Of a DNA stretch of 25,585 bases, positions 2,192-25,585 are shown piece by piece. A model generated the notes under the pieces. The model had not been told where the DNA came from and made no database searches. It saw only the letters and a program-made list of their open reading frames with translations. The first letter of the stretch is position 1. Every line of letters starts with the position of its first letter. Position numbers and translations under genes: made by a program. The DNA is from a virus, in IMG/VR virus record IMGVR_UViG_3300018059_000036, positions 1-25,585 of that record. One strand, given 5' to 3'.

Positions 2192-3172
2192 ATGCCCTAC
2201 GTCTTCAGACGACCGTTTGATTATGCAGTTCAACAACGCCGCCCGTTTATTTTCACAGTTGCACCTTCGGCAGCCACGGAGATCACCGGACAGGCGTCCG
2301 GCTCTTCATTTGCATATGGCACCCTCACGGCTGATGGTGCTCTGGCTGGTCAGGTGGTTGGAGTCAGTGCTGATAACGGGAATCTCGCGGGAGCCGGTGC
2401 GCTCGTGGGTCAGGACTACGGCAATGCAGTTGCAAACGGGAATCTTGGTGGCAGTGGTGCGCTTGCCGGTCAGGATCATGGCGCGGGCGTGGTGTATGGA
2501 AACCTTGCCGGCACAGCCAATGCAAACGGGCAGGTCGTTGGTGTCTCGGTTGCTTATGGCAATCTTGCAGGAGATGGTGCACTCAGTGGCTATGATATTG
2601 GTCAGTCGCATGAGTATGGGACTCTGCTTGGCGCCGGTGTGCTGGCTGGTGTTGATTTTGGCTCTGCCCTTGGATACGGCAATCTTGAAACGGTTGCCGA
2701 TGGTGCGATGGCCGGCAGGGTATTTGGATCATCCTTTGCCTATTATGCAGGACTCACCGGTGTAGGTGCACTCTCTGGTCTTGATGCTAGCCAATCGCAT
2801 GAGACCGGGAATCTCTCCGGTGTCGGCGCGCTGGCTGGTGTGGTGTTCGGTGAAAGCACAGGATACGGCGACCTCACCACGATTGCCGTGGGTGCATTGC
2901 AAGGGTTTATCTTCGGAAGTTCCTTTGCTTATGCCGACCTGCGAGGAGCTGGTGCGCTGGCCGGATTGTCTTATGGGCAGACTGTCACGTTTGCCGGTTT
3001 ACTGGCCAGCGGTGTCCTGGTTGGAAGAGGATATGGTTATGCCTTTGGGTATCTTTCCAATGCGGTGATCCATGCCGGAATCCATATCTATCGAAGCGAG
3101 AGACGTGCTGATTATCAGACTGAGATCAAGCACACACATAAAACGAAGCGCAAAGAGAGTGTCGAACTATGA
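2192..3172 (+). CDS. Gly/Ala-rich 20-residue-repeat virion protein
   Basis: The 326-residue product has a short N-terminal segment (residues 1-29), then about 13 imperfect repeats of roughly 20 residues (residues about 30-290), and a basic, charged C-terminal tail (291-326). The consensus is approximately xGxGALAGxxxGxSxxYGNL, with Gly, Ala, Leu and aromatic residues in fixed register. Two units are 2-3 residues longer. There is no signal peptide or membrane segment. The register suggests a beta-solenoid or stacked fibre shaft, which is inference. It follows the fibre-like gene by 10 bases and overlaps the next gene by an ATGA junction, so it is probably translated with it as part of the adsorption apparatus. 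Confidence 0.65.
   Translation: MPYVFRRPFDYAVQQRRPFIFTVAPSAATEITGQASGSSFAYGTLTADGALAGQVVGVSADNGNLAGAGALVGQDYGNAVANGNLGGSGALAGQDHGAGVVYGNLAGTANANGQVVGVSVAYGNLAGDGALSGYDIGQSHEYGTLLGAGVLAGVDFGSALGYGNLETVADGAMAGRVFGSSFAYYAGLTGVGALSGLDASQSHETGNLSGVGALAGVVFGESTGYGDLTTIAVGALQGFIFGSSFAYADLRGAGALAGLSYGQTVTFAGLLASGVLVGRGYGYAFGYLSNAVIHAGIHIYRSERRADYQTEIKHTHKTKRKESVEL
2279..3061 (+). repeat. in-gene array of about 60-bp imperfect repeats
   Basis: This stretch encodes the 20-residue repeats. At DNA level the units are diverged but keep recurring words such as GGTGCGCTGGCTGGT and TATGGCAATCTT at about 60-base spacing. Two units are 66 and 69 bases long, so indels are in whole codons. The phase is coding-driven and there is no sign of a CRISPR or regulatory array. 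Confidence 0.7.
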
Positions 3173-22092: not shown

Positions 22093-23022
22093 CTACAGCG
22101 CCCAGTTATCGACGGGCGAGGCGCGGCGGTGGGCCTTCTCGATATCGGCCTGCACGATGGACAGGTAGCGTTTAACCATGTCGAGTGTGCTGTGGCCCAG
22201 GAGGCGCTGCAGGGTATAGGGATCGCCCCCATTACGCAGGTACTCGATGGCGCAGGTGTGCCGGAAGCGATGGGCGGTGACGTCCAGCACGCCGGCGCGC
22301 GCCCCGATGGTCTGCAGGAGATCCAGCAGGCGGTGGCGGTTGAACAGCCGCCGGTTCTCCATGAGGAAGAGCGGTTCGTTGAGAGTCGCGTCGGGCCGCA
22401 GGGTCAGGTAGCGCCAGAGGGCCTGGTGCGTACGGGCGGAGATGGGCACCTGCCGTTCCTTGGCACCCTTGCCGAAGATGGCGATGCGCTGGTTGCGTTT
22501 GTCGAGATCGTGCAGTTTGATGGTGCAGAGTTCCTCATTGCGGATGCCGGTATCGAGCAGCAGCAGAATGATCGCACGGTTCCGCTCCGTGTCACGCAGG
22601 GCATGATCGGAGACACGCTTGCCGGGCCGGCTGTAGCGCTTCGAACGCTCCAGGCTGTTCAACATGGCGCGTAGATCCTGCTCACTGTAGGGCACGATGT
22701 CGCGCTGCTCAGGCTTGGGCGCCGGGATGGCGCGCACCACGTGCTCGCGCGCGATCTTCTCCCGCAGGGCCCACGTCCAAAAAGCCGAGAGTCCGGTGTG
22801 ATAATTGAGGGCTGTCTTCCTGGAGACGGTGGTTTGCGCGGCCAGGAATTCTTCGATGTGATGGGAGGTGATCTCCTCGACCAGCGGATCCTGGGCGAGG
22901 AAAGTCTGAAACTTTTTGACGAGCGTATTTTCGTAATCGTCGATGGTGTGGGAAGAGAGCTTGCGGGCCTGTGCGCTGAGGAAGAATCCTTGCAAGGCTT
23001 GTGAATAGCGAAGTGGGATCAT
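22093..23022 (-). CDS. int: tyrosine recombinase / phage integrase
   Basis: The 309-residue enzyme has an N-terminal SAM-like core-binding domain (residues about 1-100) and a catalytic domain. All expected residues are visible: R161 in TGIRNEEL, a beta-hairpin Lys in FGKGAKERQVPI (K185/K188), H251 and R254 in AHRFRHTCA, H277 in LLGHSTLDM, and the nucleophile Y286 in KRYLSI. The ribosome binding site AGGAGG lies 8 bases before ATG 23022 on the minus strand. No N-terminal arm-binding domain is evident, so it resembles the simpler XerC/D-like integrases. Its gene converges on the late operon and sits beside the tRNA-Pro fragment, so it likely integrates the phage at that tRNA. Confidence 0.93.
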   Translation of the reverse strand: MIPLRYSQALQGFFLSAQARKLSSHTIDDYENTLVKKFQTFLAQDPLVEEITSHHIEEFLAAQTTVSRKTALNYHTGLSAFWTWALREKIAREHVVRAIPAPKPEQRDIVPYSEQDLRAMLNSLERSKRYSRPGKRVSDHALRDTERNRAIILLLLDTGIRNEELCTIKLHDLDKRNQRIAIFGKGAKERQVPISARTHQALWRYLTLRPDATLNEPLFLMENRRLFNRHRLLDLLQTIGARAGVLDVTAHRFRHTCAIEYLRNGGDPYTLQRLLGHSTLDMVKRYLSIVQADIEKAHRRASPVDNWAL

Positions 23023-23101: not shown

Positions 23102-23207
23102 ATTCCAGGAAGCCTCCAGATGTGTAGGGGTTGGTGGGGTTGATTTTGGAACCTGCCCCTGCATGGTCGGCCAAATGAGCCATCCATGCAAGGTGTGACA
23201 GGTTTTG

Positions 23208-23249
23208 TCGGGGTGCCGAGATTTGAACTCGGGACCTCACGGACCCGAA
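23208..23249. other. putative phage attachment site (attP) region
   Basis: The identity block with a host tRNA-Pro gene probably spans anticodon loop to the 3' end. It lies about 185 bases upstream of the integrase start. Because phage-like genes flank it on both sides, the simplest reading is attP in the circular or virion form. The exact core cannot be set without the host attB sequence. The remaining DNA between the integrase start and the next gene (23023-23358) holds this fragment, the 23043-23101 inverted repeat and an imperfect GCATGG...CCATGC hairpin at about 23159-23190. No further gene is seen. Confidence 0.55.
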
Positions 23250-23254
23250 CCAAG
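23208..23254 (-). tRNA. tRNA-Pro(CGG) 3' fragment, putative att core
   Basis: Reading the minus strand, bases 23254 to 23208 form an anticodon arm (CTTGG, loop TTCGGGT with anticodon CGG at 34-36, CCGTG), a variable loop AGGTC, a perfect T-arm (CCGAG, TTCAAAT, CTCGG), acceptor CACCCCG and discriminator A. The acceptor 5' strand and D-stem are absent, though AGTCCGGTA just upstream resembles a D-loop. The anticodon stem has one U-U mismatch (28-42) and one G-U pair. CCA is not encoded. The gene is not functional by itself. Integrases commonly use the 3' half of a tRNA gene, so this is the expected form of an attachment site. Confidence 0.8.
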
Positions 23255-23358: not shown

Positions 23359-23939
23359 TCATGGTGTGCTGATGAAGACCCATGTGCCACAGCCATTGAA
23401 TTCAACCTGGAAGGCGTTCGGGGGGATGTAGGCCGTACCACCGGCTTGCCCGAAGTGGTTATTGATGATGTCGCCATTGGGTTTGGTGACTCCCCAATAA
23501 CAAGAATCAGCTGTGCCGTCCGAGCGCCATATCCCAGGTGCGATATCGACATTGACGAGATAGAAACCGTCCTCTTTATCAGATCGAAGTTCCTGGAGTG
23601 CCTGCGCTGTGGATGTTTGTTCCCGGTTCGGTGTGGCCGTGGGCGGAAGTGGTGTGTTTGTGATCGTTGATGTGAAGGTGTCGTTGGCGTATATTGGGGT
23701 GTGGCCGTGAAGGTTTGTGTGACGATCTGCGTAATGATCCAAGGAGTCTGAGTGGCCGCCTCGGTGGGTGTTTTTTGCGCCAACGGAATCACAGCTGGAG
23801 TGGGAGAGTCGGCGGCGCGAGATGGCGGCCTGATCAACAGCACCAACGATTGACATGCACAACAAAGGGTTATCAAGGCAAAGACTGATATGAATATCTT
23901 GCCTGTACGGATCTGCCAGAATTGTCTAATCTCGTTCAT
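23359..23939 (-). pseudogene. frameshifted exported protein with Thr/Pro linker and C-terminal domain
   Basis: Two reading frames join into one recognisable protein. From ATG 23939 the first frame gives MNEIRQFWQIRTGKIFISVF, a hydrophobic export or anchor segment (ALITLCCACQSLVLLI) and a linker (TPTEAATQTPWIITQIVTQT, then FTATPQYTPT). Near 23670-23690 the coding signal moves to the other frame, which continues the linker (ITNTPLPPTATPNREQT) and a C-terminal domain (DGFYLVNVDIAPGIWRSDGT, SCYWGVTKPNGDII, FNGCGTWVFI). That domain type recurs in secreted actinobacterial and Chloroflexi proteins. A one-base loss or sequencing error is likely. It is last in the repressor operon. Confidence 0.65.
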
Positions 23940-23952
23940 GATGCCCCTTTCT

Positions 23953-24147
23953 TTAGAGCCAATGGGTAGTTACCTTTTCCCTGCCCTCCCCCGAAAGAAG
24001 AGGCAAAGCGCGAGCAACCCAATGGACTTGCAAATAAAACTCGTTGTGCATGCGCCGGCGAAAGCCGACCCAGGCGATGTAGCGCTTGATCTGGAGCCTG
24101 TCGGCGGGATGGATTAGTCTCAATTCGGTGTAGATCTCTTCGAACAT
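23953..24147 (-). CDS. 64-residue small protein of the immunity operon
   Basis: ATG 24147 is preceded by AAAGGATTAAGA on the minus strand, a good ribosome binding site, and the gene starts 2 bases after the previous stop. The product (MFEEIYTELRLIHPADRLQI, KRYIAWVGFRRRMHNEFYLQ, VHWVARALPLL) is basic and helical, with aromatic residues. No signal peptide and no membrane-length hydrophobic run is seen. The alternative frame (23936-24172) is Pro/Arg-rich and less protein-like. No family is recognised. Confidence 0.6.
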   Translation of the reverse strand: MFEEIYTELRLIHPADRLQIKRYIAWVGFRRRMHNEFYLQVHWVARALPLLSGEGREKVTTHWL

Positions 24148-24149
24148 TC

Positions 24150-24338
24150 TTAATCCTTTTTGAGTCTGGCAAGACGTTCCTTATCGGTGGCGAGCATGAA
24201 ACCCAGGGGGACCACGATCAAGAGCAGATAACCAAATTCGCCGATGGCGCTGAGCAATGCCGGGAAAAGAATCATGGAGACAAACAGCACCCCGAAGGCC
24301 AGCAAGAATATCTTTTCACGGCGGGTGAAGAGGTTCAT
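24150..24338 (-). CDS. two-helix small membrane protein
   Basis: The 62-residue protein starts at ATG 24338 behind GGAGCTAGT and overlaps the previous stop (ATGA). It has a basic N-terminus (MNLFTRREK), two hydrophobic helices (IFLLAFGVLFVSMILFPALL, FGYLLLIVVPLGFML) and a charged C-terminus (ATDKERLARLKKD). The hairpin topology, with both ends inside, fits a small inner-membrane protein. Its place in a repressor-linked operon makes a superinfection-exclusion or envelope-modifying role possible, but nothing in the sequence proves it. Confidence 0.65.
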   Translation of the reverse strand: MNLFTRREKIFLLAFGVLFVSMILFPALLSAIGEFGYLLLIVVPLGFMLATDKERLARLKKD

Positions 24339-24592
24339 ACTAGCTCCACTGTAATTTCGACACACATATTGCTTGATGTGATTGGTGAATCGTCTTCCTT
24401 TTTGGTTGGAAATTCTTCTATAGCAATAACTCTAAACCTAGATAATCCTTTTTGATCTTTCAAATATTGAGAAAGATTAAGAATTGATCCAATCGAAGGA
24501 GGTATTGCATTGGAAAAATATTCAGCAATCAAATTTCTTTTCCCTGCATTTTTTTGATAGACCAGATACTCATAAACAAACTCAGGATTCAT
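24335..24592 (-). CDS. 85-residue protein translated with the repressor
   Basis: The start ATG 24592 overlaps the repressor stop (ATGA), so the two are probably made together. The product shows a helical N-terminus (MNPEFVYEYLVYQKNAGKRN), a middle (AIPPSIGSILNLSQYLKDQK) and a C-terminal strand region (RFRVIAIEEFPTKK, NMCVEITVELV). It has no HTH motif or membrane segment. Its base composition is more AT-rich than the late genes, as is the rest of this operon. No family is recognised. A partner of the repressor or an antirepressor-like function is speculation. Confidence 0.6.
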   Translation of the reverse strand: MNPEFVYEYLVYQKNAGKRNLIAEYFSNAIPPSIGSILNLSQYLKDQKGLSRFRVIAIEEFPTKKEDDSPITSSNMCVEITVELV

Positions 24593-25017
24593 TTGTTCTT
24601 TTCGCGTAAGTTGCGCTTCATACGGATGTAGGCCAACACTTCGCGCTGGTCGGCCTTGTTCAACTTGGCGATCTCATGCAGGATCTGTTCCATCTCTTCA
24701 TCAATGTTGATGGCAGGGGGAAGTTGACCAGCTAAACGAGAGAGATATTCAGGGGGATAGCCGAAAACCGCAGAAATTCTCACTAGTATCCTTTCATCTG
24801 GATTTGCGCGCCGCCTACTTTCGTAGTCGTTGATCGTTTGACGTGAGACCTCTGCTTTTCGTGCGAGATCGGATTGAGACCATTCTCGTTTCTCACGTTC
24901 AGTAATTATCCAATCAACCCATGCAAATGGTTCGGTTTTGTTTTTGTCCATGCTTGCGTACATTATGTCACTGATTGTTTCAAGGGTGGCTGTCAGTTTG
25001 TATGCAGCCCTTGACAT
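24589..25017 (-). CDS. XRE-family HTH repressor
   Basis: The 142-residue protein has an HTH at about residues 46-67 (WSQSDLARKAEVSRQTINDY), with the standard pattern of a Cro/C1-type domain and a following helix (ERILVRISAVFGYPPEYLSR). The C-terminal part is helical (EEMEQILHEIAKLNKADQRE) and could mediate dimerisation. No S24 peptidase domain is present, so it lacks RecA-stimulated self-cleavage. The start at 25017 lies next to two TATAAT boxes, giving a very short leader; ATG 24951 is an alternative start without the first 22 residues. It likely maintains lysogeny and controls divergent plus-strand genes. Confidence 0.8.
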   Translation of the reverse strand: MSRAAYKLTATLETISDIMYASMDKNKTEPFAWVDWIITEREKREWSQSDLARKAEVSRQTINDYESRRRANPDERILVRISAVFGYPPEYLSRLAGQLPPAINIDEEMEQILHEIAKLNKADQREVLAYIRMKRNLREKNK

Positions 25018-25120
25018 CCCAATATGATTATAGTATTATATCGGTTGTCTGTAGTCGCAGTCGAAATGACAGCAAGTGCGTAACTAAATCACATTCATTC
25101 AGTCATGATGGAGAAGCCAG
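25018..25120. promoter_or_regulatory. divergent control region between repressor and early genes
   Basis: The 103-base gap between the minus-strand repressor and the plus-strand ribbon-helix-helix gene is AT-rich next to the repressor. TATAAT occurs twice on the minus strand (25032-25027 and 25040-25035), suggesting repressor promoters with a very short or absent 5' leader. AGTCG is repeated directly at 25053-25057 and 25059-25063, and CTGT and ACAG half-sites flank that area. I cannot fix operators or a plus-strand promoter by eye. Confidence 0.5.
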
Positions 25121-25363
25121 ATGAACGAAGAGAAGAAAGAGATCAAGAAGACGCAGGCTTACACCCTGAGCCCATCAAAAATCGCCTGGCTGCGCCAGCG
25201 TGCAATGCAAGAATCGTCCCCTGAAAAGACCGTCTCGGCCAGCGCCGTCCTGGAACGGATCATCGATGAAGCGATGGTACGAAACGCAAAACAACTCGCC
25301 TTACCCATCCCCCAACCCAAAGAAAAAAAAAGAAGCTCAAGCCTTGAGGCCGTGGCTGCCTAG
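25121..25363 (+). CDS. ribbon-helix-helix-like DNA-binding protein
   Basis: The 80-residue protein starts at ATG 25121 with GGAG upstream. The segment TQAYTLSPSKIAWLRQRAMQ followed by SASAVLERIIDEAMV has the strand-helix-helix spacing of Arc/CopG-like regulators, and the C-terminus is basic (KEKKRSSSLE). It diverges from the repressor, as expected of an early regulator (a Cro-like or Arc-like role), or it may accompany the recombinase-like gene that follows. The family call is by pattern only. Confidence 0.6.
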   Translation: MNEEKKEIKKTQAYTLSPSKIAWLRQRAMQESSPEKTVSASAVLERIIDEAMVRNAKQLALPIPQPKEKKRSSSLEAVAA

Positions 25364-25372
25364 GACTATATC

Positions 25373-25585
25373 ATGACTACTTTCAACTGGCGCGTCGCCT
25401 CTCCGAATACCTTGCGAGCCTACCTGACCGCGATGAAGGAATTCGAGACGGTCACGGGTAGGCGCGTGGATCGAGCCGACGTGGTGAGCATCGAAACGTA
25501 CCGCGCTTCGATGGAAGTGCGCGGGCTGAGCCGGAATACGATCAGATGCCGGCTGTCGGCGGTCTCGATCGTGAGCGGCGTGAAG
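25373..25585 (+). CDS. N-terminus of a second tyrosine recombinase-like protein (partial)
   Basis: From ATG 25373 the frame stays open to the end of the window (71 codons). The sequence contains ASPNTLRAYLTAMKEFETVT, then RADVVSIETYRASMEVRGLS and SRNTIRCRLSAVSIVSGV. This has the pattern of the SAM-like core-binding domain of XerC/D-type recombinases (xxSxxTLRxYxxxLxxFxxxxG...xxAxxYxxxLxxxGLSxxTIxxRLSAVxxxY). The catalytic half lies outside the window, so activity cannot be judged. It begins 9 bases after the RHH-like gene and no strong ribosome binding site is visible. It would be the second such enzyme in this phage. Confidence 0.6.
   Translation, partial: MTTFNWRVASPNTLRAYLTAMKEFETVTGRRVDRADVVSIETYRASMEVRGLSRNTIRCRLSAVSIVSGVK

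What the first reader, a model, noticed from the sequence alone, without database searches (positions are those of the whole stretch)
23359..25017. Five-gene leftward operon led by the repressor: candidate exclusion or conversion module
Repressor, an 85-aa protein, a two-helix membrane protein, a 64-aa protein and a secreted protein are packed with ATGA overlaps or gaps of 2-13 bases. Genes co-expressed with a prophage repressor often act in the lysogen (superinfection exclusion, phage defence, surface change). None of the four small products is recognised beyond general features, so this is the best candidate for an undescribed system in the window.
Basis: inference. Interest (0 to 1): 0.6.

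Follow-up and report, generated by a model that had tools for sequence, protein, structure and literature searches.

The report
Prophage surface-protein operon beside the repressor
A dormant virus of (probably) Anaerolineae bacteria carries, in one run of genes with the switch that keeps it dormant, a stalked surface protein that unrelated dormant viruses carry in the same place, so it is probably a shield against rival viruses; its function is untested and the copy read here is broken by a frameshift.

Summary
The five-gene leftward run is real: HTH_3 repressor, 85-aa, two-helix membrane (62 aa from its ATGA start), 64-aa and secreted-protein genes, linked by ATGA overlaps or gaps of 2 and 13 bases, between a divergent switch promoter region and an attP (tRNA-Pro 3' end) next to the integrase. 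Two corrections. (1) The secreted gene is not one frame here: anchor and stalk lie in one frame, the C-terminal domain in another; intact relatives exist. (2) That C-terminal domain is recognised: NCBIfam NF053833 (Rv1352/Rv1906c domain, function unknown). Searching by this domain alone found 8 other phage contigs; all 7 with upstream sequence have an HTH_3 repressor upstream, all 6 with downstream sequence a recombinase downstream. Mycobacteriophages Sparky and prophiGD03-1 also carry it between annotated immunity repressor and integrase; prophi79-1, ZL12 and Jflix2 do not. The domain stays 50-66% identical while repressors (about 27-39%) and integrases (33-47%, or different families) vary. 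Best reading: lysogeny-module cargo whose conserved member is a membrane-tethered surface protein acting like (not homologous to) the Ltp exclusion lipoprotein of phage TP-J34. Function is inferred only. The 85-, 62- and 64-aa products have no detected relatives.

The parts
24589..25017 (-). HTH_3 (Cro/CI-type) repressor, 142 aa as called; real start may be an internal ATG nearer the HTH
   Evidence: Pfam HTH_3 E 8e-14; PHROG transcriptional regulators; homologous to the L002 (37%) and L009 (33%) repressors
24335..24592 (-). 85-aa orphan protein, AT-rich (32.6% GC), ATGA overlap with the repressor
   Evidence: no family above cut-off; single-sequence model beta-beta-alpha-beta-beta, pLDDT 76; no significant PDB fold
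24150..24338 (-). 62-aa two-TM hairpin protein (71 aa if the upstream GTG is used)
   Evidence: two TM segments; no relatives
23953..24147 (-). 64-aa small protein; weak resemblance to repressor C-terminal tails
   Evidence: lead only; no relatives
23690..23939 (-). 5' part of the secreted-protein gene: signal anchor and TP-rich stalk (frame 1)
23359..23700 (-). 3' part of the secreted-protein gene in another frame: end of the stalk and Rv1352/Rv1906c domain (encoded about 23362-23570)
   Evidence: NF053833 E 1e-14; 50-69% identical to 9 homologues, all 21 invariant residues kept; model pLDDT 92
23203..23251 (-). attP core: 3' part of tRNA-Pro(CGG), no complete tRNA in the window
   Evidence: 48 of 49 bases identical to an intact tRNA-Pro gene of an Anaerolineae genome; same tRNA piece beside the homologous integrase in L035
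22093..23022 (-). tyrosine integrase
   Evidence: Pfam Phage_integrase E 2e-29; 55% identical to L035 integrase
25018..25120 (.). divergent switch region with overlapping promoter-like sites
   Evidence: imperfect 17-nt inverted repeat 24989-25005 / 25057-25073
25121..25363 (+). 80-aa ribbon-helix-helix-like early protein, divergent from the repressor
   Evidence: weak PHROG 38291; RHH likeness by inspection; L009 and L012 have small divergent genes in the same place
25373..25585 (+). N-terminal part of a second tyrosine recombinase, runs off the record
   Evidence: weak XerA/C/D matches, E 0.001-0.003; L007 has a whole tyrosine recombinase in its divergent early genes

Best explanation
This is the lysogeny module of a temperate siphophage of an Anaerolineae-type host. 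From the repressor promoter one transcript is expected in the lysogen, carrying the repressor and four cargo genes up to the attP. The conserved cargo is a surface protein: an N-terminal membrane anchor, a TP-rich stalk, and a small all-beta C-terminal domain of the Rv1352/Rv1906c family held outside the cell. Its most likely job is superinfection exclusion at the envelope: made while the prophage is dormant, it would meet an incoming phage at the membrane or mask a surface component and block DNA entry, as Ltp of TP-J34 does. The two-helix protein may help in the membrane; the AT-rich 85-aa gene is a recent acquisition. Shown here: gene order, attP, domain identity, anchoring motifs, recurrent position. 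Inferred: co-transcription, surface exposure, exclusion. In this record the secreted gene is frame-broken, so either the phage has recently lost the protein or the assembly has an error.
For: Gene order and spacing. Domain NF053833. A search by the domain alone gave 8 phage contigs: 7 of 7 evaluable have a co-directional HTH_3 repressor upstream and 6 of 6 a co-directional recombinase downstream (L011 after one opposite gene). Mycobacteriophage Sparky: immunity repressor - domain protein - tyrosine integrase; Farewell same, gene not annotated; prophiGD03-1 likewise within the repressor-integrase interval. Every copy with a complete 5' end starts with a TM anchor or lipobox followed by a P/T-rich stalk. 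The domain is 50-66% identical across phages in most pairs, while repressors are about 27-39% and integrases 33-47% identical or of different families, so it persists while its neighbours are swapped. Chromosomal copies in Anaerolineae are rare (12 of 298 genomes) and, in the loci read, often multi-domain and without evident repressor/integrase neighbours. Precedent: TP-J34 has int - ltp - orf3 - CI-type repressor all leftward and cro rightward, and Ltp is a prophage-expressed lipoprotein that blocks DNA injection (PMC3952083); lactococcal Sie genes lie between integrase and repressor (PMC7693887); CarolAnn 43/44 defence genes are co-transcribed with the repressor (PMC6426606).
Against: No expression or phenotype data. 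Position alone is not proof: three genes between integrase and repressor of Dub35A gave no resistance when expressed (PMC7693887). The domain is not Ltp-like in sequence, and the model is all-beta with one helix. In three actinophages the domain protein lies elsewhere (prophi79-1, ZL12, Jflix2). The window's own copy is frame-broken. A surface change serving the lysogen (adhesion, envelope stress) fits the same anatomy.
Confidence: 0.5

Rival explanations
1. Lysogenic conversion without exclusion: the tethered protein alters the lysogen's surface (adhesion, envelope stability, binding of a ligand) and benefits the host; phage exclusion is not its role.
For: Hosts carry chromosomal homologues, some multi-domain, without phage context (L004 69% identical); in the held papers Rv1906c and Rv1352 appear as mycobacterial proteins, not in a phage role (titles and abstracts only).
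Against: Strong preference for the repressor-integrase interval in phages, where several characterised genes are exclusion genes.
Confidence: 0.27
2. Repressor-linked abortive infection: the small cytoplasmic and membrane proteins (85, 64, 62 aa) act as a RexAB/CarolAnn-like sensor and membrane effector, and the secreted protein is incidental.
For: Co-directional coupling with the repressor and a two-helix membrane protein; CarolAnn 43/44 precedent. The 85-aa gene has foreign composition.
Against: None of the three genes was found in other phages or genomes; no PADLOC model matches them. The conserved element is the secreted one.
Confidence: 0.13
3. Decayed or neutral passenger cargo: the gene run is hitch-hiking DNA beside attP, already degrading.
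For: The secreted gene is frame-broken; three genes are orphans; sites next to attP gain cargo easily (general knowledge).
Against: The broken domain still has all 21 invariant residues, and intact copies persist across divergent phages.
Confidence: 0.1

Closest known systems
Ltp superinfection-exclusion lipoprotein, Streptococcus thermophilus phage TP-J34 (PMC3952083)
   Same: Between integrase and CI-type repressor, leftward, cro divergent; anchored outside the membrane and expressed in the prophage state (both shown for Ltp, inferred here)
   Different: Unrelated domain (all-beta Rv1352/Rv1906c against Ltp's two repeats); TP-rich stalk; here often a TM anchor in place of a lipid; no exclusion data
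NCBIfam NF053833 Rv1352/Rv1906c domain proteins (mycobacteria, other bacteria)
   Same: The C-terminal domain is a member (E 1e-14, above cut-off)
   Different: The phage copies studied are stalked and mostly single-domain, and many sit in the lysogeny module; no function of the family was found in the held papers
Sie2009-type lactococcal membrane exclusion proteins (PMC7693887)
   Same: Small membrane proteins encoded in lysogeny modules between integrase and repressor
   Different: No family match for the window's two-helix protein, which has no detected relatives
CarolAnn gp43/gp44 and lambda RexAB (PMC6426606)
   Same: Cargo cotranscribed with the repressor, including a membrane protein
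   Different: No DUF4747-type partner recognised; two TM helices against four in gp43

Membership tests
NF053833 Rv1352/Rv1906c domain | Score above the curated cut-off of 25 bits | tested here: met
   54.6 bits, E 1e-14
Ltp family | Sequence or repeat-domain homology to Ltp | tested here: inconclusive
   No Pfam or PHROG hit and no NCBIfam hit other than NF053833; modelled fold is a helix plus seven strands. No direct alignment to Ltp was run; nothing points to homology
Ltp family | Gene between integrase and repressor, same direction, divergent early genes | tested here: met
   compared with PMC3952083 Table 3
Ltp family | Lipid- or membrane-anchored outside the membrane | tested here: inconclusive
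   Signal anchor by hydropathy; lipoboxes in L007, L008, L010, L011 and L004; exposure not shown
Superinfection exclusion protein (functional class) | Blocks DNA entry or adsorption of a superinfecting phage | not testable with these tools
   Needs a lysogen or expression strain and phage challenge
Known anti-phage defence systems | Match to a PADLOC model beyond a generic HTH | tested here: not met
   Only HTH parts of the repressor match
Temperate phage lysogeny module | Integrase, attP, repressor and divergent early genes together | tested here: met

The most novel reading that the evidence does not exclude
Rv1352/Rv1906c-domain proteins are a previously unrecognised family of prophage-encoded, membrane-tethered superinfection-exclusion proteins shared by phages of Chloroflexota-type hosts and Actinobacteria, and the orphan mycobacterial proteins Rv1906c and Rv1352 are chromosomal relatives whose role may touch phage entry.
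Probability: 0.3. Interest if true: 0.7.

Novelty: new variant of a known kind. Interest (0 to 1): 0.5.

Why it matters
It gives a concrete, testable function for a widespread domain of unknown role, and shows that the 'exclusion protein between integrase and repressor' layout known from lactic-acid-bacteria phages recurs with an unrelated protein in phages of other host groups. Sparky in Mycobacterium smegmatis makes it testable in a tractable laboratory system.

Tried and rejected
Repressor as bait in viral contigs: no relatives. 71- and 64-aa proteins in viral contigs, the 62-aa protein in phages, and 62-, 85- and 64-aa proteins in 199 Anaerolineae genomes each: nothing; the 85-aa protein was not scanned in viral contigs (only in phages, best E 0.5). 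Tail protein as bait: nothing. PDB sequence hits of the domain to haemagglutinin rejected as chance (E 0.014 or worse, short stretches). PDB fold hits of the domain and of the 85-aa model: none significant. Programmed -1 frameshift considered: by inspection no slippery heptamer at the place where the two frames must join, so not proposed. Idea that the 64-aa protein is a repressor-tail mimic: it ranks just behind the training tails among about 900 ORFs and scores p 0.004 against the window repressor, but no better than chance against the other seven repressors; kept as a lead only. Idea that the operon is host DNA outside the prophage: rejected because the tRNA piece lacks its 5' half and its 3' end points to int, as in attP. 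A related prophage in genome G248 (terminase 52-56%) was read, but no comparable lysogeny module was seen on its contig. Rfam: nothing significant.

Full report
The window is a whole IMG/VR record of 25,585 bases (classed there with the virus records). Structural genes run rightward to about 21.9 kb, then a tyrosine integrase runs leftward (22093-23022; Pfam E 2e-29). Between it and the reported operon lies a 49-base piece, 48 of 49 identical to the 3' part of an intact tRNA-Pro(CGG) of an Anaerolineae genome; ARAGORN finds no whole tRNA in the window. A 55% identical integrase in another phage sits beside the same tRNA piece. The piece lacks the tRNA 5' half and its 3' end faces the integrase, as expected of attP, so the operon on the other side is phage DNA. 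The terminase is 52-56% identical to one in an Anaerolineae genome, which supports that host class; the host remains an inference.

The five leftward genes are there as described, with ATGA overlaps at the first two junctions and gaps of 2 and 13 bases at the next two. Overlapping divergent promoter-like sites lie between the repressor and the rightward genes, although the number of such sites in the region equals chance. No leftward terminator-like site was found inside the operon. Co-transcription is therefore likely but not shown.

The secreted gene is not one reading frame in this record. The ATG at 23939 opens a signal anchor and a stalk rich in Thr and Pro; the C-terminal domain that ends at 23359 is in another frame. 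All homologues with complete 5' ends are single ORFs with anchor, stalk and domain. The domain in the window keeps all 21 residues that are invariant among ten homologues. So the break is recent or an assembly error; the tools at hand cannot tell which.

That domain is NCBIfam NF053833, Rv1352/Rv1906c (E 1e-14). AlphaFold gives a confident model of one helix and seven strands (pLDDT 92). No PDB structure matches significantly; among predicted viral structures the top hits, marginal in E-value (0.001-0.04), include proteins of Mycobacterium phage Aziz and Rhodococcus phage ChewyVIII and a 'lipoprotein' of Gordonia phage VanLee.

The decisive comparison was made with the domain alone, without regard to position. 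It brought up eight phage contigs. All seven with upstream sequence have a co-directional HTH_3 repressor upstream; all six with downstream sequence have a co-directional recombinase downstream, serine integrases of several kinds, where the window has a tyrosine integrase. L008 and L009 have a small membrane protein between repressor and domain protein, L010 and L011 a second lipoprotein. Among named phages, Sparky has immunity repressor, domain protein and integrase in that order; Farewell has the same sequence, with no gene annotated on that strand; prophiGD03-1 has it beside the integrase inside the repressor-integrase interval. prophi79-1, ZL12 and Jflix2 carry it elsewhere. Counting only loci with both flanks, 7 of 10 lie in the interval; if 5% of phage genes lay there, chance would be about 1e-7, with the reservation that some of these phages are related and the 5% is a guess.

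Within this set the domain is mostly 50-66% identical between phages (L010/L011 higher, some pairs with L012 lower), repressors about 27-39%, integrases 33-47% or of different families. The domain protein is thus the steady element while regulators and integrases are exchanged. In 298 Anaerolineae genomes only 12 carry the domain; the host loci read show no evident repressor/integrase context.

This layout is that of TP-J34: int, ltp, orf3 and a CI-type repressor leftward, cro rightward, Ltp being a prophage-expressed lipoprotein that blocks DNA injection (PMC3952083). Lactococcal Sie proteins are encoded in the same interval, but genes from that interval of Dub35A gave no resistance when tested (PMC7693887), so position is suggestive only. 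Defence genes cotranscribed with a repressor are known in Gordonia phage CarolAnn (PMC6426606).

The other three cargo products stay unexplained. The 85-aa gene has 32.6% GC, below every equal-sized window of the phage body (minimum 43%), which marks it as recently acquired; a single-sequence model gives beta-beta-alpha-beta-beta at pLDDT 76 without a significant fold match. The 62-aa protein is a two-helix membrane protein. The 64-aa protein weakly resembles the C-terminal tail of the repressor, a lead only. None has relatives in the collections searched.

It is a new variant of a known kind. In the held paper library the papers naming Rv1906c or Rv1352 do not, from their titles and abstracts, describe the domain in phages; this is not an exhaustive literature check.

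Noticed in passing
window 25373-25585 (+): N-terminal part of a second tyrosine recombinase in the early rightward genes, besides the integrase at 22093; L007 likewise has a tyrosine recombinase in its early genes plus a serine integrase.
   Followed up: partly
L012 5635-6516: Phage copy with two tandem Rv1352/Rv1906c domains on one TP-rich stalk.
   Followed up: no
L045 (Mycobacterium phage Farewell) 2270-2779: The Sparky gp46 homologue is present (98.9%) but not annotated; two hypothetical genes are annotated on the opposite strand over it.
   Followed up: yes
window 2192-3172 (+): Protein made of many similar repeats of the type GALAG..YGNLAG near the left end, after a LamG-like protein (176-985, by inspection); looks like virion surface or tail material.
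   Followed up: no
L010 6306-6797 and L011 6375-6863: Conserved 163-aa membrane protein (65% identical) on the opposite strand next to the domain lipoprotein; in L011 it lies between that gene and the integrase.
   Followed up: no
L008 5461-5757 and L009 5409-5675: Related ~90-aa membrane proteins overlapping the end of the repressor gene; same place as the window's small membrane gene but not clearly homologous.
   Followed up: partly
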